Source of the DNA: a virus
DNA length: 20,469 nt
Reading direction: 5' to 3' (one strand)
Virus record (IMG/VR): IMGVR_UViG_3300025128_000444
Location: 1-20,469 of that record
Shown: one piece after another, positions 1 through 19,597 of the stretch
Numbering within the stretch: the first letter of the stretch is position 1
Layout of the letters: each line of letters opens with the position of its first letter
Position numbers and translations under genes: made by a program
The notes under the pieces: generated by a model
Told to the model about the DNA's origin: nothing
The model's input: only the letters and a program-made list of their open reading frames with translations
Database searches by the model: none

Positions 1-3000
1 GCATATTCTTTGCCGCCGGTCAAATCCCCACTACGCACATACGCGCGTATCGCGCCGTCGCTCATTTTCTCCAGGGCCGCGACGGCATCCTGGTCATTCT
101 TGTTGCTCGCGTACCGCGTTGCCTCGCGCCGTATCGTGTCGGTGTTCTTGCCCCACCAATCGCGCACGGTATTCCAATCGGTGACCAGTTGCTCTGTTCC
201 AAATTCCAGCGCATCAGATTTCATTTGTTCGAGGAACAGGTGACCGTTTTCATGCAGGAAGGATGACGGGTCCGCGTCCTTGCCTAATTTTATGACAGTT
301 TCATGCGCTCTAAATTCTATGCTGGCGCGTTCGCGCTGTTCGTATTGAACTACGTTAATCAGCTTATCGTCGTAGACAACGTAGTTATAACTTTTTTGAC
401 TGTGATCTAAGTACCGATTGCCGGCGACACCTTCTTTAGCAAGCGCAAGGGACACTTCCCGACCAGCCCAATCAGCCTTCATATACTTGGCTATTGATCG
501 ATACCATTGTTCTCCTGACAGGACATCGACCCCGGCACTTTTAGATGCATCCGTTTGTGGACTCAAATGAGGCGTAATCAATAAGGGATCTTCACTTGGG
601 TCGTAATTAATCTTCTCTTGGATATTTTTGACTGCCTGGATAACCAAATCGGATTGCTGGGTTATCGGATTCGAGAAGTCCAAAAACTGATCGTCTTCTG
701 GGATCTCGACCTCGAACAATCGACCGGGCCGACTTATCTTAATGTCGAACAAATCAATAAGTTTCTCAGCCTCTACAAAACCCTGGTAAAAAAGTAATCC
801 CTGTTCCTTCGCGAACTCAACATCACGTTCATCTCGCCTTCCTCTATTTGCCCACTGGCTAATGAAATACTGGAAACCAACTACAGCCATATAATCGTCT
901 TTGAGAAGAGGAACGTCTATGCCACGATCAATCAGATCTTGTGGTCTATAATCGTCTGGAACCATCATGCCAGAGTCGACCACTTCTTGTTTTAACTTCC
1001 CAAACTCTTGCATATCGTAGACCACTTCCGTTTCGAAAGCGTTCCACAACTCCTCCTTTAGTTCAGACGGCGTTAAAATTACACCGTCCCACTCAAAACC
1101 GAATTGAGATGCATCCACGGCGGATAAAGTTTCACGGTAAAAATTAGCCACCTCCCACTGGGAGGCGAAATACAGCCCCCAGCCGTATGCCTGCAACCCC
1201 TCACCCGTGCCTATTGCACTGGTCGAGAACTTTTCAAATCGATGCGGTGTACCGTGATAGACGGGTTGCAGAAAGACGCCGCTAGGCTCTAACCCCTGCC
1301 CTGCAAGGATGCCGGTAAATCTGCTGCCAGTTCCGCTGGGAGATAGTCCAGGTTCAAATCTGGGTAAGCCGCTTTTAGATAGTTCTTCAGAGTAACTGGA
1401 ATCGAATTCTCCTCCAATAACTCCACTATCGCGTCCTTCCCACTCCGGTGGATTGATACCCCCCGCGTGCTGGACGACCGCATCCCGCGCCTCTTCGATG
1501 GTAATTTTGCCATTGCGATAATTATCCCATACTTGCTCTATCGCTTCAATATTAGCCGAGTCTTGTTTGTATGCCGGCGTGAATAATCCTCGCGCTGCTT
1601 CCCAGGTTATCGACTGCATTTGCCGCGCCGAAACACCACGTTGACTAGCCGCTAGTCGATAGGCTTCCGCATAAATTCCATACAAGCCTTCGACGCCATT
1701 ACCTTTATAATTTTTGGCGGCGATCCACTCTGGCGGCTTTTTGCCAACCATAGGAGATGATCCAAAATTGTGGTGAACCTCACGGCTACCGCCCGACAAT
1801 GGTTGCAGCAACGCCGCTGCAACAGCATGCGTATCGATTGTAACATCTTGCGCGCTCGAATTGGGCGAAAGAATGTTATTAAAGAAATTTCTGACCTTGT
1901 GCTTGGCTCCCATCTCTATGGAAATGTTTTCTGGACTTGGATCTAAAATTACATTCACTGCTTTAGTGATTTCCGAAAACGATCCCCATCCTGTTTTCTT
2001 TTCCTCACCGACCGGCGTCAGTATACCCATATCATCAATTGGACTTTCAACCGTGCCGCGCGCCCAATCCGCGAACTCACCTTCGGGCGTTACAATTCTA
2101 TGCCGCCGGTCGTTATAGGTTTCATCATAAATTCGAAGCCAAATTGCTTTGTGCTTGGGGTCAAGCACTTCCGCCAAAGTCTTCCCCTGGATTTCCTTCA
2201 GTGCTTTTTTATAAGCCGGAATAATTTTTCCAGGTATTGGCTTACTATTTTTCTTAACGGCAAGCACCGAGTCACGCGCTGCCTTTAACATTGCATCATC
2301 AAAACGATGGTTTTGCTGATTGGTCATAATGTCGAGAACACGTTCGCCCAGCGACACATTCATAAACCAATCTTTTTGCGGTGACAGAGATGCCAGCACA
2401 CCCGCAACAACGCGATCTGGCACGTTGTACTTAACAGACCATTTATCGGTTAATGCCCTGGCACCATCGTACCAAAGACGAGAGCGATCTCGCGTTTCCG
2501 CTGGGACGCTATCATATAAGTGCAATAGATTAGAGATTAGATGATTAACAAAATTTTCTGCCAGTTCATCTGACGGTAAATTAGCATCGGCTTGTTTTAC
2601 GTTACGATATCGTCCGACAATCTCACTCATATTAAATTCAAACGTATTTCGATCACGCTTCATTGTGTCGAGATCGATAGTAAGGTTCTCTGTTAATGGG
2701 TCTTCAGTCGCAAACTTAGTTGTCGGTTGCCGTGTACTAATGCGGTCAGGATGTCCTATTAAGTTATCTTTCGTATCAACTTGCTCGAACTCGCGCGATT
2801 CCTGCATCGCGGCATCGACCGCCGCGCGGATCTCCTCATTGGTCGCTTCGGGCGTTAGACCAGCCTGATCCATGATCAACTGGAGTTCAGCGATATCGCC
2901 TTCATACTCTTCGATCTGCCGCTGTTCATCGAGCGACCTAAACGGCGCACCGCCGATATCAGACTCGATAGCCTCGATCAAAACGTCCTGGCTAACGTAG

Positions 3001-5303
3001 CCGGTATCAGTTCCCTCGACCGCGTCGAGAATATCTAACTCGCTTTGCACCAGGTCATCAGCGGACTGCAACCCGCCCTTAACGAACAGCCGGCGGTTTG
3101 TCTTTGGCGTTATGTCGCGTGCCGCTAATTCCGCCGCCAACGGACCTGTCGGATCAACGCCACCACGCTCGATCAATTCGTTAATCATCGGCGTCTTGCG
3201 TAGACCCAGGAACTGTTCCGCCGGAATACCGCCGCGTAGCTTATCGATAGCTACATCGAGCATGTCGAAGCCTGGGAGTTCCTGCCCCGGCGCGGTAACT
3301 CTCACATTGTCCCGGCGCCACATTTCGAGCGGAGACATATCCGCGCGCTCACCTCGCGTGGCGTAACGCTCCGCAAGCAATAAGCCATAGAACTGGGCTT
3401 CGTTTTCAGATCGTCCCGCCGCCTTGACCTGGGCCTCGACTTCCTTACGGATTGTCTCGACATCTGACATGGACTCCAGATCAATCGCCTCGATCTGGCC
3501 CTCCAGGCGCTCCATTTGATCTGCGAAGAAACTATCTTCGTATTCCTGCGCCTCTGCCGCCGTCATGTCACTGTCATCGAAGCGCACATGGTCAGCTATC
3601 TCACTGTAGGTTTCGGCACCGGTCAGCACCGCAAAACCATCTGCATCTATTTTTATGTCGCCATCCAACTGGATAGCTTCCGCCATCTCTTCGTTTGTGA
3701 CGCCCAGGCTTTCCATAAAGCCAGGATCATCTAACTCCTGTGCATATCTATTGAGCGTATTGGCATTGATTGTTACTTCGTCAATGCCATTGTCACGAAA
3801 AACCTCCGCTCGATGTTCAGCGGCAATCTCCGGTGCGCGTTCTGCCAGCTTTGTTTTTCGCGATAGTTCAAGGGCATCTTTTAAACGTGCCACCTGACGC
3901 TTAACTTTTCTGGCCTTGCGTACATTGTTTAGTTCTTTTCCGCCAAACACAGCAAACTCGGCTGGAGCCATCGCCAGTTCAGCAACGGCTTCCACAACCA
4001 CTTCGCCCCAGTTCTCGACCTTGCCTTCGGTTTTTAACTGCGCAAGCGCCTCACCGCCGCCGCCTAAAACAGGTTGCGCGACCATGTTAATCAGAATTGT
4101 TCTTAGGACGCCGCCATAAATTTGCGAAGCAACGCCACCGGATATTGCATCGAGAGATCCGATAATAGCCCCTCGATCAAAGCCATATTGTTGAGCCTGG
4201 AGCATCACCTCGCGATTACTGACAATTTTCTTAATGTCTTCCGGCTTGCTTAAATCGTAACCCTGTTTTGCAAAGTATTCTGCCGGCGAAGAAAACCTCT
4301 CTGTTAACGCAGACCCAAAACCCAATGTAACCGCGCCTGCTATAGGCCCACCGGCAACCGTAGCACCAGCGGCAACAGCGAGTTGCGGTGCGAACTCGCC
4401 GGCTACCTCAAGGCCCATCAACAATGTTGCGACAGGGTCTGACACAGCCGCCTCGATTGCTTCCCTCGGACCAAGTTTGCCAGCTTCTATAATTGCCTTT
4501 AGATGCCCTGCCTGTGCCATCTCGTATTCACTTTGAGACAACGTATTCAATTCCTGCACGCGCCTTAATCGGTACGCAGCCGCCTTTGCAGCTTCCTTTT
4601 GCGAAAGCAACCTGGACGTAACGTACCGCTCTGACGCGAGTAACAGATCGAAGGGGTTGTATATCGAAATCGGACTTGCCGCCTGCACGGGGCTTTGCTG
4701 GCGCAGTATTTCCATGAAGGATTTATCAGTGTCATCCGCTTGCTGCGCGCTTTCTTCTGCCAGGAACTGTTGAGATCCAGCGGCAATGCGTAACCCGCCG
4801 CGCGCTCCCGCGCGACCGCCATATTTTATCGTCGCCTCGACGGCAGACAATTCCTCCGCACTGTCCTGCGCGACACGATAATTATCAGGGTTCTGGAAAA
4901 ATTTCGCAGTCGCCGGCATTTGTAATGCGCGCACGAAATCATCTCTGTGGGCTTTGTCCGAATACGCTTTCGGATCTTCGTAAATATCATCGACGTTCGC
5001 GCCAATTTTTTTTGCCAGCTTCCTGGCGTCTGCAAACTTATTCGGATCAGTATCTGTGCCTAGCAACCGGTTGTTATCTTGCGCGCGTTCCTTCGCACCA
5101 GAGGTGAGCGGTGCCGTTAATAATTCAGCGAAATTATCCGCCGACCCTTCAGATCCCGCTACCGGTGGCCTGGGACCAAGCGGTTGTTCATCTCCTATTT
5201 CACCATAATTACCAGCCCGTATTCTTGCATCAGCATACCCAGCCGAGGCGGGTTTCTTTTCTTTCTTATCGTCATCATCAATTTTGAGAGGGACTACTGC
5301 CAT
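1..5303 (-). CDS. Giant polyvalent ejection protein (gp16 position), C-terminus outside window
   Basis: The frame is open from ATG at 5303 to the left edge (1767 codons, no stop), one base after the previous gene's stop. Residues about 285-430 are hydrophobic and Gly/Ala-rich, ending in an FDRGAIIGSLDAISGG-type stretch that I recall from giant podovirus virion proteins. Residues about 850-1290 form a domain with SPQ974-976, W979, N982, VTIDTHA around D1157-H1159 and ITWEAARG near 1234. Residues about 1345-1655 match the polyvalent-protein ADP-ribosyltransferase (ART-PolyVal): YHG 1349-1351, GTGEG 1365-1369, GWGLYFA 1374-1380, LFEVEIP 1529-1535 and a YVVYDD stretch near the end. HENGH at 1684-1688 is an HExxH zinc-peptidase motif. 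Being last in the virion operon, it is probably packaged in the core and injected, with its enzymatic domains acting on host targets (inference). No lytic transglycosylase motif is seen at the N-terminus. Sampled GC is lower left of about 2.8 kb. Full length, and any third zinc ligand, lie outside. Confidence 0.9.
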   Translation of the reverse strand, partial: MAVVPLKIDDDDKKEKKPASAGYADARIRAGNYGEIGDEQPLGPRPPVAGSEGSADNFAELLTAPLTSGAKERAQDNNRLLGTDTDPNKFADARKLAKKIGANVDDIYEDPKAYSDKAHRDDFVRALQMPATAKFFQNPDNYRVAQDSAEELSAVEATIKYGGRAGARGGLRIAAGSQQFLAEESAQQADDTDKSFMEILRQQSPVQAASPISIYNPFDLLLASERYVTSRLLSQKEAAKAAAYRLRRVQELNTLSQSEYEMAQAGHLKAIIEAGKLGPREAIEAAVSDPVATLLMGLEVAGEFAPQLAVAAGATVAGGPIAGAVTLGFGSALTERFSSPAEYFAKQGYDLSKPEDIKKIVSNREVMLQAQQYGFDRGAIIGSLDAISGGVASQIYGGVLRTILINMVAQPVLGGGGEALAQLKTEGKVENWGEVVVEAVAELAMAPAEFAVFGGKELNNVRKARKVKRQVARLKDALELSRKTKLAERAPEIAAEHRAEVFRDNGIDEVTINANTLNRYAQELDDPGFMESLGVTNEEMAEAIQLDGDIKIDADGFAVLTGAETYSEIADHVRFDDSDMTAAEAQEYEDSFFADQMERLEGQIEAIDLESMSDVETIRKEVEAQVKAAGRSENEAQFYGLLLAERYATRGERADMSPLEMWRRDNVRVTAPGQELPGFDMLDVAIDKLRGGIPAEQFLGLRKTPMINELIERGGVDPTGPLAAELAARDITPKTNRRLFVKGGLQSADDLVQSELDILDAVEGTDTGYVSQDVLIEAIESDIGGAPFRSLDEQRQIEEYEGDIAELQLIMDQAGLTPEATNEEIRAAVDAAMQESREFEQVDTKDNLIGHPDRISTRQPTTKFATEDPLTENLTIDLDTMKRDRNTFEFNMSEIVGRYRNVKQADANLPSDELAENFVNHLISNLLHLYDSVPAETRDRSRLWYDGARALTDKWSVKYNVPDRVVAGVLASLSPQKDWFMNVSLGERVLDIMTNQQNHRFDDAMLKAARDSVLAVKKNSKPIPGKIIPAYKKALKEIQGKTLAEVLDPKHKAIWLRIYDETYNDRRHRIVTPEGEFADWARGTVESPIDDMGILTPVGEEKKTGWGSFSEITKAVNVILDPSPENISIEMGAKHKVRNFFNNILSPNSSAQDVTIDTHAVAAALLQPLSGGSREVHHNFGSSPMVGKKPPEWIAAKNYKGNGVEGLYGIYAEAYRLAASQRGVSARQMQSITWEAARGLFTPAYKQDSANIEAIEQVWDNYRNGKITIEEARDAVVQHAGGINPPEWEGRDSGVIGGEFDSSYSEELSKSGLPRFEPGLSPSGTGSRFTGILAGQGLEPSGVFLQPVYHGTPHRFEKFSTSAIGTGEGLQAYGWGLYFASQWEVANFYRETLSAVDASQFGFEWDGVILTPSELKEELWNAFETEVVYDMQEFGKLKQEVVDSGMMVPDDYRPQDLIDRGIDVPLLKDDYMAVVGFQYFISQWANRGRRDERDVEFAKEQGLLFYQGFVEAEKLIDLFDIKISRPGRLFEVEIPEDDQFLDFSNPITQQSDLVIQAVKNIQEKINYDPSEDPLLITPHLSPQTDASKSAGVDVLSGEQWYRSIAKYMKADWAGREVSLALAKEGVAGNRYLDHSQKSYNYVVYDDKLINVVQYEQRERASIEFRAHETVIKLGKDADPSSFLHENGHLFLEQMKSDALEFGTEQLVTDWNTVRDWWGKNTDTIRREATRYASNKNDQDAVAALEKMSDGAIRAYVRSGDLTGGKEY

Positions 5304-5304
5304 G

Positions 5305-7299
5305 TTACCGACTCCCCTCTGCCGGCTTGCTGAAACTCATCAAACGCCTATTAGCATCTGCCTTGATCTCAGGATCTACGGCTTGATCCATTACCATTTT
5401 CAACGCGATAAGGTGAGCAATCAGCCTATCCTTGCTGTAGTCTTTAATATATTGATCAGCCGCGTAACTTAACCCTCTGCCGTCATACACAGCATTCCGA
5501 ATTGCTGCGATAGCCCCTCGTATCGACGGCATTTGTTTCTCTGCAAATTCCAGGTCTACCTCTAGCCCATCTCTCTGATCGTCTGCCATGGACGAGTATT
5601 CCAGCAGCACTCCGACCGCTGGGTCTATATCATCTGCGCGGAAACTCCTTTCGGTGGATGTAATGCCCCATACATCGTCCTCGACGCCTGCTTTTAGATA
5701 TAAACCGCGCACATGCTGACGTATTTCTACTTCAGTCGGCCACTTATTATGTTCCGCCTCAAACGCGGTAATCCAAGACTCGACCCTAGCTTTAATCCGA
5801 TTCGCCGCCTGTGCTTGCCCAGGCGTTGCACCATCTCTAAAACCTTTTCGGGTATTGGTGGGCGCGATATCCCGTATCGCATTCTCCCCTCTAGTATACG
5901 CGGCGTCGCTTGTTTGCCTTCTTTCCGCCTTATTATCAGCCGTTCGTTTTAGATTTATTATTTGGTCCCATTGCCTCTTCGACACTTGGCTAGTGTGAGT
6001 CATCTTGCCATCAACTACAACAGATGTATCCGTTAAAGAAACCTCCTCCCATTCAGCGTCAGTCATCGAGAGAAGTTTACGACCGTCATCTGTATCACCC
6101 TCCGCAAATTTAATCCCGTCTGCCGTTTTTATTGCCGCCCTTTCAAGGTTGCCGAGTACCCCATACTCGGTTGCCAGTATCGCAAAGTCTCCAGGGTTAT
6201 CCTTTATCCATTGCCGATATGACGTTCCTCCCGTAATCTCCTTGGTTGCCCTCTTCAACGCTTCGTTAACATTAGCTTTCTCCACACTTGCGACCTGGGC
6301 CTGTGCAGCCTTAACCAGCGGTGCCACCAGCTTCCGTATGCTTGCCGGCAAACCTTTCAGATCCTCTTGCACCGACTTTAATTTTTCTGGGTCAATCCTT
6401 CCATCAGCGGTGGTTATACCCGCATTATTCCGTCCAAGTAGCCGATCCGCTGCCGCAAATGCTGCTTGTTGATCTACACCGGTTTTCAACTTAGCCATCA
6501 AGTCCACAGCTTCATCTGGATCGATATCTTTTGCCGCGACCCGTTCCTTGAAAAACTTATCAGCTTCCTCGAATTTACCCTCATTAATCAAACGCTGGAC
6601 ACGCTTCACAGCCATATCTGTAATTGCTGATTTCACCTGGTTTGCGATAACTGCCCTGTCGGTAATGCCAACAGACTTAGCACTTTCTTCCACCTCGCCA
6701 GTGACCACAGCCTTTGCATCATGAAATTTTTGCTCATCACCCAGGATGCCGCCGTGCTGCCCTTCTTCGAGACGCGCAGCACGAACAATTTTTTGGAAGT
6801 TTTTATTTTGCTGGTCGTGGAATTTAAAGGACGCCTCGATCTCTGCGCCGACCGAATTATCAAACTGACTTCGCAACAACCGCTTAACCGCATCGGTTGG
6901 CGCGGTCTTAAAAACATCCTCATAATGCTTACGGACTGCCGCCTGGAATTTCCCTGTTTCCGCAATAGCCTCTTGGTTATTTAGATTGTAATAACCTTTG
7001 CGAACACTCGTTGAGTCACTCTCATCGAGCAACCCGCCGTAACTTTCAACGCGCACCCGTCGCATCGCTTCAGTGTCGAGTTCTTTCGCTTGCGCGATAT
7101 TGTTTTCTTGCTGCGTCTTTAACGCAGTAGCCGCCCACTGGTTGCTGGCTTGCCCCACAGCGTTGCCGGCAGAAACTAACGATCTGCCTATCCCTGCGCC
7201 AAATGCGTCTGGGGTTGCGCCTTCGGCGCTTTGGTATGCATTGCCGACATCCCTCACCTGCGTGAGGTTGCCGATATCAATTTTAGGGACGGTAGCCAT
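5305..7299 (-). CDS. Internal virion protein, T7 gp15-like by position
   Basis: This 664-residue, mostly helical and highly charged protein has no signal peptide, no membrane span and no enzyme motif that I can see. It lies between a gp14-like protein and the giant gp16-position protein. That is the T7 order gp14-gp15-gp16, and the length is near that of T7 gp15 (about 750). By position it should form part of the ejected inner core that makes the channel through the periplasm. It contains repeated charged helices, such as NEGKFEEADKFFKERV in the middle. It starts at ATG 7299, overlapping the stop of the upstream gene by one base (TAATG), which suggests translational coupling. A GGGGAG near its 3' end can serve as the ribosome site for the giant gene. 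The family assignment rests mainly on synteny and general character. Confidence 0.8.
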   Translation of the reverse strand: MATVPKIDIGNLTQVRDVGNAYQSAEGATPDAFGAGIGRSLVSAGNAVGQASNQWAATALKTQQENNIAQAKELDTEAMRRVRVESYGGLLDESDSTSVRKGYYNLNNQEAIAETGKFQAAVRKHYEDVFKTAPTDAVKRLLRSQFDNSVGAEIEASFKFHDQQNKNFQKIVRAARLEEGQHGGILGDEQKFHDAKAVVTGEVEESAKSVGITDRAVIANQVKSAITDMAVKRVQRLINEGKFEEADKFFKERVAAKDIDPDEAVDLMAKLKTGVDQQAAFAAADRLLGRNNAGITTADGRIDPEKLKSVQEDLKGLPASIRKLVAPLVKAAQAQVASVEKANVNEALKRATKEITGGTSYRQWIKDNPGDFAILATEYGVLGNLERAAIKTADGIKFAEGDTDDGRKLLSMTDAEWEEVSLTDTSVVVDGKMTHTSQVSKRQWDQIINLKRTADNKAERRQTSDAAYTRGENAIRDIAPTNTRKGFRDGATPGQAQAANRIKARVESWITAFEAEHNKWPTEVEIRQHVRGLYLKAGVEDDVWGITSTERSFRADDIDPAVGVLLEYSSMADDQRDGLEVDLEFAEKQMPSIRGAIAAIRNAVYDGRGLSYAADQYIKDYSKDRLIAHLIALKMVMDQAVDPEIKADANRRLMSFSKPAEGSR

Positions 7300-7844
7300 T
7301 AGCTAAAGATCCCCTCTTTTTTAAACCCGTACCATTTATTGGAAACACTACTCGCACCCTCAAACAGCGAAGTCGTCGCACCTATGCGACCGGCTGTAAG
7401 TGCATTTCTAGATGCCATGTCTGACAACGCTGCGCTAGATTCGAAGTTCTGCCCCTCGACCAGCAAACCGTATTTCTCACGCTCGACATTCGCCGCGAGG
7501 TTCAACGCATCCAGCTTGCCCCATCCAGCCGTTTCCTCGACGATACGTCCTGCACTTTCCTCATCAACAACAACACCCATGCCAGCCTGGGCGGTACGCT
7601 GCCGACCCATAAGCTGCGCCGTTTTCCAATTAACTTTGTTAACTTCGGTCCTGCCGCGCTCTGCCGCATCGTGCGCGCGCCATACAGCGACTTGCTGGTT
7701 GTTCCTGGCGACCGCCGCCTTATACGCCGCTGACCTTGCATCAGCCTTCGCCTGGGCCTGTTGGCCCATCATTGTTATGCCTGTACTCGCAGCGCCCATA
7801 ACCAGTGACGCCGTTGCCATTGTTGTAGTGCTAAATGCCGGCAT
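7299..7844 (-). CDS. Internal virion protein, T7 gp14-like
   Basis: A 181-residue protein. Its N-terminal 30 residues are rich in Ala, Gly, Met, Ser and Thr and moderately hydrophobic. A long Ala/Gln/Arg-rich helix follows (QQAQAKADARSAAYKAAVAR and onward), and the central RQRTAQAGMGVVVDEESAG segment is typical of gp14-type core proteins of T7-like phages. T7 gp14 is 196 residues, so the size fits. Members of this family leave the virion during infection and insert in the host outer membrane, forming the first part of the ejection channel. The start at ATG 7844 overlaps the preceding stop by one base (TGATG). The gene order (gp13-like, GNAT-like, this gene, gp15-like, giant) supports the call. 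Confidence 0.82.
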   Translation of the reverse strand: MPAFSTTTMATASLVMGAASTGITMMGQQAQAKADARSAAYKAAVARNNQQVAVWRAHDAAERGRTEVNKVNWKTAQLMGRQRTAQAGMGVVVDEESAGRIVEETAGWGKLDALNLAANVEREKYGLLVEGQNFESSAALSDMASRNALTAGRIGATTSLFEGASSVSNKWYGFKKEGIFS

Positions 7845-8317
7845 CAGACCGCTCCCGCGTATGTATGTTGCAGTAACCGCAGACCCATCCGCTTATAGAT
7901 CTTCGGCACTGCGCTAGGACTTCCCGGCAGATGATGCATGACGGCAAACGACACGCCGTGCTTCTTAATGTGCTGACGCAATCGACGCAGTAACGCCATG
8001 CCTGCGCGTGCCGGCGCATCCCTTGCCGCCCACCAAAACAACTCATCCGCCGATTTGCGGGAGGGATCAAACGGATAAGGCGCAATCATCACACCCGTAC
8101 CGCCAACGCACTTGTCATCGTCATAAGCCAGGAAGATCGAAATCAAACCTGTTTTAATCAGCGCATCTATTGCAGCGTCCAGGTTCAAGCGACCTTCAAT
8201 CGTTTCGATATCCGGCAATATGTCAGGTCGCCCCACATCACGAGCAAACTGCACGGCACCCCAGCGAATATCCCTCATATGCATTTTGTTCAGCGGATCT
8301 GCCTGGATAACTTTCAT
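7844..8317 (-). CDS. GNAT-fold acetyltransferase-like phage structural-region protein
   Basis: A 157-residue protein starting at ATG 8317, which overlaps the upstream stop by four bases (ATGA) and has a G-rich stretch (GGTGGGGG) upstream. An in-frame start at 8398 would add 27 residues lying inside the neighbouring gene and is not favoured. The protein has a GNAT-like layout: CVGGTGVMIAPYPFDPS is the central strand pair, ELFWWAARDAPARAGMALLRRLRQHIKKHG is where the acetyl-CoA loop and helix would be, and VPKIYKRMGLRLLQHTY is the usual C-terminal Y-x-x-x-G strand. The canonical R/Q-x-x-G-x-G/A loop is degenerate (ARAGMA), so activity is uncertain. Proteins of this type are common beside the tail and core genes of podoviruses. 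Their role is not established, and a virion or assembly role is as likely as enzymatic acetylation. Confidence 0.72.
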   Translation of the reverse strand: MKVIQADPLNKMHMRDIRWGAVQFARDVGRPDILPDIETIEGRLNLDAAIDALIKTGLISIFLAYDDDKCVGGTGVMIAPYPFDPSRKSADELFWWAARDAPARAGMALLRRLRQHIKKHGVSFAVMHHLPGSPSAVPKIYKRMGLRLLQHTYAGAV

Positions 8318-8772
8318 GCTTGCCCCCACCAAAATTTTTGGAAAGGCATATTCAAGAAACCCCAACGGACGGGCGCCGACATCTCGAACCCTAACCACCG
8401 TAACCAGCGCAGCGCCTTGCGGTTTCTTACATCCGCATAGTTGGTCAGGTAGCTATATGCTCCTCTCATTTCCTCGAACGCTACTTTGCTGCGCGGAAGG
8501 AAAGCGCGCGCGTGCTGATCAATCAGATCCGTACCCAGTAACCAAGGCCGGCCACAATCGCTCATAACGTGCGCTTGCTCGACGCCAAACATGCAGACCA
8601 CATTGCCATCGGCTAGCCCTGTCATCGGCTCCCGCGACCGAGAGAACGCAGCCGTCGCCGCAAACGATGGACTTATCCCGTGACTTGCAAACACCTCATC
8701 GATATCGGCTTGCCGCATGCGACCGCCTAGCTCGATGGCGTGATTCAATTTGGCTGGGACGACCTCGTACAT
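8314..8772 (-). CDS. T7 gp13-like protein (internal virion protein A region)
   Basis: A 152-residue protein starting at ATG 8772, whose first base is the last base of the tail tubular B stop (TGATG). An upstream in-frame start at 8865 would run inside tail tubular protein B and is rejected. The layout resembles T7 gp13 (138 residues), which has a degenerate GNAT-like fold. There is an early ASHGISPSFAATAAFSRS segment, a central WLLGTDLIDQHARAFLPRS segment matching the T7 region around WFVTSDQV, and a YLTNYADVRNRKALRWLRWLG segment matching the T7 region ending HIRFLKTIG. T7 gp13 is needed for core and virion assembly. Here the gene sits between gp12-like and gp14-like genes, exactly as in T7. 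The assignment comes from remembered T7 sequence and synteny. Confidence 0.72.
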   Translation of the reverse strand: MYEVVPAKLNHAIELGGRMRQADIDEVFASHGISPSFAATAAFSRSREPMTGLADGNVVCMFGVEQAHVMSDCGRPWLLGTDLIDQHARAFLPRSKVAFEEMRGAYSYLTNYADVRNRKALRWLRWLGFEMSAPVRWGFLNMPFQKFWWGQA

Positions 8773-11537
8773 CACCCACCTATTGCAACATCTGGCACAA
8801 TTGCCAGAACCGTTATCGGTAGAGGATCTGTCTGTCGGATAAACACACGCGCGCCCAGGTTCCAATCTGGCGTGATAACAATTTCCTTATCGCCGGTCAG
8901 TAATTGCGTAGGTTGACCAAGCAACTCAAATTCTCGCTGCTTCAACTCGATCAGGTTATCAACATCGGGACCAACGAAACCGCCGCGCGTATCCTCCAGG
9001 CGCAACGTAACCTTGCTCACTTTCTTCAATCGATGTTGGACCGTTCCACCTCGCGTAGAGTAATTGAGATCGAGCGTCTCCATGTCTGTCGTATAACCCA
9101 AACCGATATGAACGCGGCTCGATGCACGCGGTAACGTGACCGCACCGCTCGACACCACAAGGTCTGGCACAACATTGCCATCTGCCAGCACTTTAACAGT
9201 CTCGCCTTCCAGATGATTTAAACCGCTGATCGAGGTCACCGCCTCGCGCGCTTTGCCGCCAGCCGTATACGCCGTATAGGCCGAGCCATCGACGCCAGAT
9301 AATTCAAACGTGTTTGTCGTTGCGTTCGCGACCGTAAAACGCAGATCGTTGATCTGGCTCATACCTGTTGCGGCACCGGCTGAATTGGTGCCGGTCGTGA
9401 CATCGGAGATATCGACCAGATCACCATTCGAGAAACCATGACTTGCAGCGGTAATCACAACAGGGTTTGCCGCTGTCGCACCTGTAATCGCGACCGGAAC
9501 GTCCAGGCTCAAACCACTATCGATGAAAAATGAATCGCGGACATCATCGAAGTACCGAGTATGCAACCGCTCAATATATTTAACCGTGTTACCGTTGATT
9601 GTTCGCTCGACAACGAAATAGACGCCGTCCTCTACATCGTTGCTTTCCGGCACCGCGCACACGGATTTGAAAGTTCCAACCGTGTCATGCCGTGTCCAGG
9701 CAACGACCTCCTGTTCCCTGTTGTAGGTCAATGTCAACAATGTGCCGTCGCTTTGCACAACCCAGATCATGCTATGCGGGATCTGTTGATAGCCCCATTC
9801 AGCTATCGTTTTATTTTCAAATAAATGCGTGGACAGAATAGTGAGATCCCCGCCCACGTAACTATCCGACTCCAACTGGTAACCAATGTTACGAACCATT
9901 GAGCCACGATCTTGGACAAACAGGATCGACCCGCCGACCACGATAGGCGGCACATGGCTTGCGCCAACGTAGGTTTGCGGGTTTTGCCGGATCGTGCTGG
10001 CGCTAAACGCGACATCGCTACCGGCGTTGATTTTCCATTCCGAACCACTTGTCAGCACGATCAAATCATTCAACGGTATGAAGTGCCGGATCTCATTCAG
10101 TTGCAGCGCGCTTAATGCTGCCGTAATCGCGTCATCGTCGCGGCTAGGCGTCGAAGTATTGAAGTTCGATTGATTACCGGTCTGCGTATAGAAAATAGTA
10201 TCCGGCTTGTTGTTGGTATTCCCAAACACTCGCCGCTGTTGGTAATAGCTAACGCAGCTAGGCTTGTTGTTCGTAAATCTAAACGGGTTCTTTTGTTGCG
10301 GCGGCGTGTCGCTCAAATCAGGATCGATGTTGTCATCGATAAAACTGGTGCCTTTACTAGACCCAATAAAACCGAATATGCCGTGATCCTCTTTATAGAC
10401 ATCGTACTTTTCAGCGCCCGCGACCGCCGTCCAGCTAACCGTGATCGTATTGGTTGATGACATCGCGGCGGTGTTCGCACTCGTAAAGTCCCTGGCGAAC
10501 GTGCCGCCAGACGCATACGCCGTATGGCTTGTGCCGTCCTCACCGCGCAACTCAAACGTGTTTGTCGTTTTATTCGCAACAACAAACCGCCGACCGTTCA
10601 GTTCAGTCATCCCAACCACGGCAGCTATATGGATGGTATCGCCATCGTTTAGCGCGTGACTGCTACTGGTGACCACGACAGGGTTGGCCTGGGTCGCAGC
10701 GGTAATCGCTGTTGTGCTAACGATCCCAGGCAAACTTTGTTCCTTTGTATCCTCCGCAACCGCCACGACCTGATATGCATAATTGATCGAACCGGCACTT
10801 GCCGGTGACGCCGACACGCCGGTCGGAAACGTGATCAACGGTTCGAATGTAGGTGTAGTCAACGTCCAGGTCGTGTGCGCCGTTCGCGACAATTCACGCG
10901 GGTCATACATCGGGTGCGCCAACGTCAGAACATCACCAGACTGTGCGAACTTTAATTGTGCCAGAGATGCCGCGTTCCACGGCGTTGTCACAGTAAAGAC
11001 GCGCTCCGCTTTGCCTGCACTGCCATACGCCGTAAACGCCGAGCCATCGATGTTCGCACCCGTTATCTGGTCTGTAAGTTCGAACGTGTTCGTAGTTTTG
11101 TTCGCGACCACATACCGGTTTTGGTTCAATTGCGTCATACCGACAACTTCGGTAATCCGCACCTCGTCACCATTCTCGAAACCGTGGCTATTAGAGGTGA
11201 TCACAACCGGGTTGGCTTGCGTTGCGCCGGTTATCGTTTTCGCTGTTTCTAGAATATGACCGCCATTGCGGATTGGCCGCATATAGAGGTTTCCAAATTC
11301 TAGGATGTAAGTGTCATCGCTCGACGCCTCGAACGGGATCAGGCGAACAGTGTCGGTATGCGATTTAACCGGCCCGACATATTGCGTGCCTGGTCGGTTC
11401 GACAATCCGCCGGTCGCATAAACCAGTGCGTTGCGCGCCGTCCGCATCGCGACGGCATACTTCGATACATCGATGCGACCATATAGTGCTGGGCTAATCT
11501 CACCCGCTGCAAACGATGGCTGGACAAGCGTCACCAT
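8772..11537 (-). CDS. Tail tubular protein B (T7 gp12-like) with three FCCH-like repeats
   Basis: A 921-residue nozzle protein of the short tail. The N-terminus (VQPSFAAGEISPALYGR, then NALVYATGGLSNRPGTQYVG) is the hallmark start of gp12-type tail tubular B proteins. I chose ATG 11537, which overlaps the tail tubular A stop by seven bases; a GTG at 11552 would add five residues. T7 gp12 is 794 residues, and the excess is explained by three copies of a roughly 75-residue repeat at about 102-178, 278-350 and 684-765. Each runs ITxATxANPVV...SHG...GD...GM..xN..R.xVAN.TTNTFEL...YTAYxxGG. This resembles the FCCH-type beta-barrel domain often found in phage structural proteins. The protein should assemble as a hexamer below the gp11-like adaptor and form the DNA exit channel. 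Confidence 0.93.
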   Translation of the reverse strand: MVTLVQPSFAAGEISPALYGRIDVSKYAVAMRTARNALVYATGGLSNRPGTQYVGPVKSHTDTVRLIPFEASSDDTYILEFGNLYMRPIRNGGHILETAKTITGATQANPVVITSNSHGFENGDEVRITEVVGMTQLNQNRYVVANKTTNTFELTDQITGANIDGSAFTAYGSAGKAERVFTVTTPWNAASLAQLKFAQSGDVLTLAHPMYDPRELSRTAHTTWTLTTPTFEPLITFPTGVSASPASAGSINYAYQVVAVAEDTKEQSLPGIVSTTAITAATQANPVVVTSSSHALNDGDTIHIAAVVGMTELNGRRFVVANKTTNTFELRGEDGTSHTAYASGGTFARDFTSANTAAMSSTNTITVSWTAVAGAEKYDVYKEDHGIFGFIGSSKGTSFIDDNIDPDLSDTPPQQKNPFRFTNNKPSCVSYYQQRRVFGNTNNKPDTIFYTQTGNQSNFNTSTPSRDDDAITAALSALQLNEIRHFIPLNDLIVLTSGSEWKINAGSDVAFSASTIRQNPQTYVGASHVPPIVVGGSILFVQDRGSMVRNIGYQLESDSYVGGDLTILSTHLFENKTIAEWGYQQIPHSMIWVVQSDGTLLTLTYNREQEVVAWTRHDTVGTFKSVCAVPESNDVEDGVYFVVERTINGNTVKYIERLHTRYFDDVRDSFFIDSGLSLDVPVAITGATAANPVVITAASHGFSNGDLVDISDVTTGTNSAGAATGMSQINDLRFTVANATTNTFELSGVDGSAYTAYTAGGKAREAVTSISGLNHLEGETVKVLADGNVVPDLVVSSGAVTLPRASSRVHIGLGYTTDMETLDLNYSTRGGTVQHRLKKVSKVTLRLEDTRGGFVGPDVDNLIELKQREFELLGQPTQLLTGDKEIVITPDWNLGARVFIRQTDPLPITVLAIVPDVAIGG
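9245..9488 (-). repeat. FCCH-like repeat copy 3 in tail tubular protein B
   Basis: This encodes residues about 684-765 of the tail tubular B protein, beginning ITGATAANPVV and ending near AGGKARE. It is the most divergent copy, with a short insertion (GTNSAGAA) before the GMSQIN motif. It still keeps VANATTNTFEL and YTAYTAGG. Confidence 0.85.
10490..10706 (-). repeat. FCCH-like repeat copy 2 in tail tubular protein B
   Basis: This encodes residues about 278-350, beginning ITAATQANPVVV and ending near ASGGTFARD. It shares VVGMTELN and VVANKTTNTFEL with copy 1 almost unchanged. At DNA level the stretch encoding NTFEL is also very similar to the other two copies. Confidence 0.87.
11005..11234 (-). 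repeat. FCCH-like repeat copy 1 in tail tubular protein B
   Basis: This encodes residues about 102-178, beginning ITGATQANPVVITS and ending near GSAGKAERV. It holds HGFENGDEVRI, VVGMTQLNQNRYVVANKT and TNTFELTDQI. It has a slightly longer loop (TGANIDGS) before the AYGSAG end than copy 2. Confidence 0.87.
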
Positions 11538-18762: not shown

Positions 18763-19161
18763 TCAGATACTATCAACGCTTTCCAATATGTCAACGGTCA
18801 GTTCGACCGCCTCAGCCGGCGTTGACGCCTTCACCACGTAGGCATGATGATCCAGGTCGCGCAGCCCTTTGAGTCGTTGCTTCTGCGTCTTCGACAACTG
18901 ACCCCTGGCGGTCTTCATCTCGATGAACACCGTTCGACCGGCATCGAGGTAGATCCGCAGATCTGGTTCGCCCGCCGCCATGCCCAGCGCCTTGCGCCTT
19001 GCGCCATCACGCGCAGACCGCCGACCAGCATTCTGATCGGCGGCAAACATGTAACCGGATTTTCTTAGATGCTGCGCGACAGCCATCTGGAGATCATCTT
19101 CACGCCAACGTATCGTGGCGTCTGCCCAGTTCGACTGCGATAGTAGTTGCTTAGTACTCAT
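18763..19161 (-). CDS. Stand-alone VRR-NUC domain nuclease
   Basis: A 132-residue protein taken from ATG 19161, which overlaps the upstream regulator stop by eleven bases. A longer frame from 19215 lies wholly inside that regulator gene. The protein is a single VRR-NUC domain of the PD-(D/E)xK superfamily. It has E21 in REDDLQMAV, GEPDL with D67, the E81-x-K83 core in VFIEMKTARGQLSKTQ, and the late glutamines Q88 and Q93. A final YVVKASTPAEAVELTVDIL helix completes it. These nucleases are common in phages beside replication or packaging genes and are thought to process branched or structured DNA. Here it is the last gene of the early block, directly before the terminator. Confidence 0.88.
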   Translation of the reverse strand: MSTKQLLSQSNWADATIRWREDDLQMAVAQHLRKSGYMFAADQNAGRRSARDGARRKALGMAAGEPDLRIYLDAGRTVFIEMKTARGQLSKTQKQRLKGLRDLDHHAYVVKASTPAEAVELTVDILESVDSI

Positions 19162-19597
19162 CCCTAACGAGCCGCACCTTATACCCCAAATGATCCGCCA
19201 CGCGGTACAGCACACTCAAATCAGGCCGGCGCCGTCGTAATCGATAGTTGCTGATCGTGGCATGCGACACGCCAGCCGCTGGGCCAAAATGCGTATCGGG
19301 CATTTGCTGTAGGTCGATCAACTCCAGCATTTGCCTTTCGACAGTACCCCAGGCATACGGTTTTAACTCGCTCTGCCGTACAGCACTGCCACCTTCCACC
19401 ACCTCAAGATCTGGCGAAACGGCTTCACCATCCTCCTCAATCGATACCGCATGTGGGTAGTCCTCTCTTGCGTCTGCCATTGTCTCGTATCTCTCCCGAT
19501 AAACTTTCTGACCTTCGTCGCATTGCATGCACTGGCTACCTGACCAAGTCTCCCAGGTGCCATCGCATTCGCCACATTCAACAGTTATCACAAACAT
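19151..19597 (-). CDS. Zinc-ribbon plus helix-turn-helix regulator
   Basis: A 148-residue protein, ATG 19597, with AGGG five bases upstream. The N-terminus carries two CxxC pairs (C8/C11 and C23/C26) separated by eleven residues, a probable zinc ribbon. An acidic linker (about 40-75) follows. The C-terminal part reads LIDLQQMPDTHFGPAAGVSH and then ATISNYRLRRRRPDLSVLYR, ending VADHLGYKVRLV. The GVSHATISNYRLRRRRP segment looks like an XRE-type helix-turn-helix with its recognition helix, and the VADHLGYKV end is typical of that fold. It probably binds DNA. A copy of the repeated element lies 16 bases upstream of its start, so it may control itself and the other element-bearing genes (inference). 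It overlaps the nuclease gene by eleven bases. Confidence 0.78.
   Translation of the reverse strand: MFVITVECGECDGTWETWSGSQCMQCDEGQKVYRERYETMADAREDYPHAVSIEEDGEAVSPDLEVVEGGSAVRQSELKPYAWGTVERQMLELIDLQQMPDTHFGPAAGVSHATISNYRLRRRRPDLSVLYRVADHLGYKVRLVRDEY

What the first reader, a model, noticed from the sequence alone, without database searches (positions are those of the whole stretch)
1..1280. ADP-ribosyltransferase domain plus HExxH motif inside a virion ejection protein
Within one reading frame that occupies the gp16 position, residues 1345-1655 carry the polyvalent-protein ART pattern (YHG 1349-1351, GTGEG, GLYFA, LFEVEIP, YVVYDD), followed closely by HENGH at 1684-1688. Established knowledge: polyvalent proteins of phages and conjugative elements combine such domains and are thought to enter the host with the DNA. 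Inference: this phage injects a modifying enzyme and possibly a protease that act before phage transcription starts. The peptidase may instead process the giant chain itself.
Basis: partly seen in the sequence, partly recalled or inferred. Interest (0 to 1): 0.7.

Follow-up and report, generated by a model that had tools for sequence, protein, structure and literature searches.

The report
Giant phage ejection protein with toxin-like cargo
A short-tailed phage makes a roughly 3,000-residue protein, probably injected with its DNA, that carries a probable protein-modifying enzyme (an ADP-ribosyltransferase) on a carrier with a built-in metalloprotease-like segment; it belongs to a known class, the polyvalent proteins, but its parts can be sorted into fixed carrier and exchangeable cargo.

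Summary
Relatives show a complete protein of 3,138 aa. The ART assignment is supported by Pfam ART-PolyVal (E 2.7e-5, below the curated cut-off alone, but 41/42 aligned relatives match), a profile comparison and a Foldseek match to a phage PolyVal ART. Gene order puts it in the T7 gp16 place.

New here is the sorting of parts. Among 66 relatives selected only by the C-terminal carrier, all 66 have the [ST]-x-x-HExxH zincin motif before it, but only 9 have the long ART. Bordetella phage BPP-1 Bbp10 shares only zincin plus carrier. So the HExxH belongs to the delivery backbone and the ART is exchangeable cargo. A second cargo, DUF7178 (852-1289), confidently modelled, with no PDB fold match, is a separate gene between gp15 and gp16 in many T7-like cassettes.

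Most likely: an injected polyvalent protein; the ART modifies a host target and the zincin processes the chain or has a carrier role. Injection, NAD chemistry and proteolysis are inferred. Known kind, new member.

The parts
3..5303 (-). Giant ORF, 1767 aa, 3' open (runs off the contig); polyvalent ejection protein in gp16 position
   Evidence: complete 3138-aa relative L083
4815..5063 (-). LPD22 domain, residues 81-163
   Evidence: Pfam PF18834, E 4.1e-11, above cut-off
1437..2750 (-). DUF7178 domain (residues 852-1289), second cargo; looks enzymatic by its invariant polar residues, function unknown
   Evidence: Pfam PF23802 E 1.8e-25; about 50% identity in at least 79 viral loci; AF2 pLDDT 89.9 pTM 0.89; no PDB match
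339..1271 (-). ART-PolyVal-like ADP-ribosyltransferase domain, residues 1345-1655, with a long, mainly helical insert after strand 2
1254..1256 (-). H1350, strand-1 histidine of the ART, 42/42 relatives
1170..1172 (-). Y1378, strand-2 tyrosine of the ART, 42/42 relatives (partly fixed by the search pattern GWGLYF)
369..386 (-). N1640-D1645 (NYVVYD), strand 5; N 42/42, D 41/42
   Evidence: H-Y-D configuration described in PMC5512222
3..326 (-). Zincin-like domain, N-terminal part (from about residue 1660); rest lies beyond the contig
240..254 (-). HENGH, residues 1684-1688
   Evidence: [ST]-x-x-HExxH motif in 66/66 carriers
5305..7299 (-). 664-aa ORF in the gp15 position
   Evidence: no PHROG or Pfam match
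7299..7844 (-). Internal virion protein, gp14 position
   Evidence: phrog_418 E 9.7e-19; matches BPP-1 Bbp12

Best explanation
The ORF is the N-terminal ~1,770 residues of a roughly 3,000-residue polyvalent ejection protein of a podovirus. The C-terminal ~1,300 residues, starting with the HExxH domain, are a conserved carrier shared with Bordetella phage BPP-1 Bbp10 and related phages (shown). N-terminal to it sit exchangeable cargo domains: here DUF7178 and an ART of the H-Y-D PolyVal type (shown by homology and fold). Inferred steps: the protein is packed in the head with the gp14- and gp15-position proteins, passes into the cell during DNA ejection, and the ART uses NAD+ to ADP-ribosylate a host target before or as phage transcription starts, as T4 Alt does. 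The zincin most likely works for the carrier itself, cutting the chain to free the cargo or to fit it into the head, and less likely attacks host proteins.
For: ART: Pfam, hhalign 93% probability, E 3e-7 to canonical ART-PolyVal copies, AF2 strands 1, 2 and 5 carrying H, Y and N/D, Foldseek to A0A8S5RYQ5 'PolyVal ADP-Ribosyltransferase' E 3.3e-6, prob 1.00, target-normalised TM 0.68. Backbone versus cargo: 66/66 carriers keep the HExxH motif, 9/66 have the long ART, 18/66 canonical ART, 0/66 DUF7178; L083 matches the window on both sides but has another ART where the window has DUF7178; Bbp10 and Carin1 gp32 align only from the zincin on, apart from a weak N-terminal match in Carin1. Position: same order in BPP-1, Carin1, phage AF, ctEw122 and SR18. 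Literature: ARTs and zincin MPTases in phage polyvalent proteins (PMC5512222).
Against: No virion proteomics for this phage, and none found for Bbp10. The window protein alone is below the Pfam ART-PolyVal cut-off. The PARP-type catalytic Glu position appears to be Asn here. No PDB structure matched the ART-zincin model at E <= 0.001. The zincin is supported by HExxH, an invariant downstream Glu and predicted helices only; the best PDB profile hit, SprT/Spartan, is not significant (E 0.09).
Confidence: 0.72

Rival explanations
1. The HExxH domain is an effector protease that cleaves host proteins after injection.
For: HExxH and a downstream Glu are strictly conserved; PMC5512222 lists this as a possibility.
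Against: It is present in 66/66 carriers regardless of cargo, next to the conserved C-terminal carrier, and is kept in BPP-1 Bbp10 without the ART, unlike a swappable effector.
Confidence: 0.15
2. The ART fold is catalytically dead and serves as a binding module, since the PARP-type catalytic Glu position is Asn (N1640).
For: N1640 is invariant, 42/42, where PARPs have Glu (general knowledge).
Against: H1350 and Y1378 are kept and D1645 is conserved 41/42; the published active-site configuration of this family is H-Y-D.
Confidence: 0.15
3. The giant is not injected; the enzymes act during assembly or late infection (for example on phage proteins or to exclude other phages).
For: No direct virion or injection data were found; virion cassettes are usually expressed late (general knowledge).
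Against: It lies in the ejection-protein position in this and other podoviruses. T7 gp16 and N4 vRNAP, which occupy comparable positions, are ejected.
Confidence: 0.12

Closest known systems
Polyvalent proteins of phages (Iyer et al. 2017, PMC5512222)
   Same: Giant multidomain protein in a phage virion cassette combining ART, HExxH MPTase and LPD22
   Different: DUF7178 is not named in the passages read; here the zincin is shown to segregate with the carrier and the ART with the cargo
Bordetella phage BPP-1 Bbp10
   Same: Same genome position; homologous from the HExxH domain to the C-terminus (26.7% over 1,382 alignment columns to L083)
   Different: No alignment to the ART or to the N-terminal part; 2,052 aa
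N4 virion RNA polymerase (gp50)
   Same: About 3,500-aa ejected protein with HExxH domain followed by a large helical C-terminal domain and N-terminal cargo (PMC12633501)
   Different: Cargo is an RNA polymerase; carrier homology not significant by sequence
Bacteriophage T4 Alt
   Same: Model for a head-packaged, injected ART (PMC5512222)
   Different: Alt is of the R-S-E class, a separate protein, not part of a polyvalent chain
T7 gp16
   Same: Same place in the cassette between the gp15 position and tail fibres
   Different: Sequence relation not tested; T7 gp16 has a transglycosylase domain and is 1,318 aa (PMC8954989)

Membership tests
ART-PolyVal (PF18760) | Score above the Pfam curated cut-off | tested here: not met
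   Window 25.4 bits against 31.2; relative L059 40.4 bits over nearly the whole model. The domain is therefore called ART-PolyVal-like, related to the family, not filed as a full Pfam member
ART-PolyVal (PF18760) | His in strand 1, Tyr in strand 2, Asp in strand 5 | tested here: met
   H1350, Y1378 and D1645 with AF2 strands on relative L002; D sits just after the strand. Definition from PMC5512222
ART-PolyVal (PF18760) | ART fold | tested here: met
   Foldseek viral library, PolyVal ART A0A8S5RYQ5 E 3.3e-6; PDB comparison not significant. The model is of relative L002, 55% identical to the window in alignment A2
ART-PolyVal (PF18760) | NAD-dependent ADP-ribosyl transfer | not testable with these tools
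   Needs a biochemical assay
Zincin-like MPTase of polyvalent proteins | HExxH on a helix and a Glu on a second downstream helix | tested here: met
   HENGH in the window; Glu 40/40 in relatives (L002 E1256); both in predicted helices of the L002 model. The Glu of this phage itself lies past the contig end and was not seen
Zincin-like MPTase of polyvalent proteins | Zincin fold by structure or profile comparison | tested here: inconclusive
   No Pfam match; SprT/Spartan profile hit E 0.09; no known zincin recognised among the listed Foldseek PDB hits
Polyvalent proteins | Several unrelated catalytic or LPD domains in one giant chain encoded in a virion cassette | tested here: met
   LPD22, DUF7178, ART, HExxH; gene order
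Podovirus ejection proteins (gp16 position) | Gene follows gp14- and gp15-position genes and precedes tail fibres | tested here: met
   for the window's upstream genes; downstream tail-fibre-like ORFs seen in L002, judged by position and composition; BPP-1
Podovirus ejection proteins (gp16 position) | Present in virions and ejected into the cell | not testable with these tools
   No proteomics at hand
HhH-GPD DNA glycosylases (considered for DUF7178) | Profile or fold similarity | tested here: not met
   hhalign probability 0.3%; no Foldseek PDB match

The most novel reading that the evidence does not exclude
DUF7178 is a virion-delivered enzyme of a fold not represented in the PDB. It travels either as its own gene between the gp15- and gp16-like genes of T7-like phages or fused into giant ejection proteins beside an ART, so that ejection carriers act as interchangeable delivery vehicles for unrelated effectors.
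Probability: 0.35. Interest if true: 0.65.

Novelty: new member of a known kind. Interest (0 to 1): 0.42.

Why it matters
It gives a concrete, testable case of a podovirus ejection protein doubling as an effector vehicle, and separates the fixed carrier (zincin plus C-terminal ~1,300 aa) from exchangeable cargo. That predicts where the chain should be cut, suggests that cargo is dispensable for delivery, and singles out DUF7178, common in T7-like virion cassettes, for an activity screen.

Tried and rejected
DUF7178 as an HhH-GPD DNA glycosylase: motifs looked alike by eye (LSPQ..W..N, HKVRN, IDTH), but hhalign against 34 HhH-GPD sequences and Foldseek gave nothing. Homology of the C-terminal carrier to the N4 vRNAP C-terminal domain: same order of parts, but no significant profile match against 11 vRNAPs. 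Virion evidence for Bbp10 or the phiGT1 ART gene in papers: none found in the main texts searched; the phiGT1 mass-spectrometry table is in a supplement that could not be opened. PDB fold match for ART plus zincin: only weak, non-significant ART-fold hits (diphtheria toxin, RES toxin, tankyrase). NCBIfam: no family. Papers naming DUF7178: none.

Full report
The sequence. The window is a 20,469-base IMG/VR fragment carrying a podovirus virion module on the minus strand: large terminase, portal, major capsid protein, two tail tube proteins, an acetyltransferase, an internal virion protein in gp14 position, a 664-aa protein in gp15 position, and the giant ORF 3-5303. The giant is open at its 3' end. 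In relative L002 the chain continues about 1,220 residues past the window's last residue, and in L083 the whole protein has 3,138 residues.

The observation. Pfam finds LPD22 (81-163), DUF7178 (from 919) and ART-PolyVal (1347-1391, E 2.7e-5, below the curated cut-off). The short ART match is explained by a long, mainly helical insert after strand 2: in the AF2 model of L002 strand 1 holds the His, strand 2 the Tyr, and strand 5 the NYVVYD segment. In 42 relatives H1350, Y1378 and N1640 are invariant and D1645 is 41/42. The Tyr is partly fixed by the search pattern, but L059, found through DUF7178, has the same layout and matches nearly the whole Pfam model. A profile comparison with canonical ART-PolyVal copies gives 93% probability. 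Foldseek finds phage ART-PolyVal proteins, the single-domain one at E 3.3e-6; the PDB search gave no significant hit. The H-Y-D configuration is the one reported for polyvalent-protein ARTs (PMC5512222).

The HExxH. A Glu in a later helix is invariant in 40/40 relatives but lies beyond the window. To test what the HExxH belongs to, I selected relatives only by C-terminal carrier motifs. Of 66 with at least 600 aa upstream, 63 have HExxH within 600 aa and the other three have the same STFLHEFAH motif slightly further upstream. Only 9 have the long ART, 18 a canonical ART and none DUF7178. BPP-1 Bbp10 aligns with L083 only from the zincin onward; Carin1 gp32 does too, apart from a weak N-terminal match. 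L083 and the window agree at 58% in the N-terminal part and 49% from the ART onward, but between these the window has DUF7178 and L083 another ART. Shown, therefore: the zincin motif is part of the carrier, and the ART and DUF7178 are exchangeable cargo.

Position. The same order (internal virion protein, gp15-position protein often annotated lysozyme or transglycosylase, giant, tail fibre or spike) is annotated in BPP-1, Carin1, phage AF, ctEw122 and SR18, with minor differences such as holin genes before the spike in AF and unannotated neighbours in SR18; LS06-2018-MD07, whose giant has DUF7178 and an ART motif, shows the upstream part. T7 gp16 (PMC8954989) and N4 vRNAP (PMC12633501) are ejected from comparable positions. 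N4 vRNAP also has an HExxH domain followed by a large helical C-terminal domain, but I found no significant sequence relation, so this remains a likeness of layout.

DUF7178. The full domain is about 440 residues, about 50% identical across most of 79 viral loci. In 53 of these loci its gene is flanked by gp15-like and gp16-like genes (L003). It also occurs beside GGDEF and RadC domains in L167. Its model is confident (pLDDT 89.9, pTM 0.89) and matches nothing in the PDB library. Invariant polar residues (for example SPQKDWFMN, DTHA, QSITWEA) suggest an enzyme. A glycosylase relation was tested and not supported.

Mechanism. Best explanation: an injected polyvalent protein whose ART modifies a host target early and whose zincin serves the carrier, most likely by processing. 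PMC5512222 reports processing of phage P1 DdrB, but N4 vRNAP is packed unprocessed, so timing is open. Injection, catalysis, target and proteolysis are all inferred.

Verdict. The finding is sound and the class is known. The additions are the carrier-cargo split and the recurrence of DUF7178 in ejection cassettes.

Noticed in passing
window 7844-8398 and 8314-8865, minus strand: Two adjacent, slightly overlapping ORFs: the first matches an acetyltransferase PHROG, the second looks by eye like a T7 gp13-type virion protein; possible acetyltransferase pair in the gp13 position.
   Followed up: partly
window 18763-19215, minus strand: ORF that by eye resembles a VRR-NUC-type nuclease, just upstream of the terminase genes; not searched.
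   Followed up: no
L083 830-1000 and 1443 onward; L086, L090, L117, L133, L152 (protein residues): Many relatives carry a canonical ART-PolyVal copy N-terminal of the long ART, often directly adjoining it, i.e. tandem ARTs in one chain.
   Followed up: partly
L178 (Sulfitobacter phage phiGT1) 4918-6081: An ART-like match lies in a separate 387-aa gene in the head cassette (phiGT1_5), suggesting that this ART also travels as its own virion-module gene.
   Followed up: partly
L167: Pseudofulvimonas gallinarii contig with a 2,603-aa frame combining GGDEF, RadC and DUF7178.
   Followed up: no
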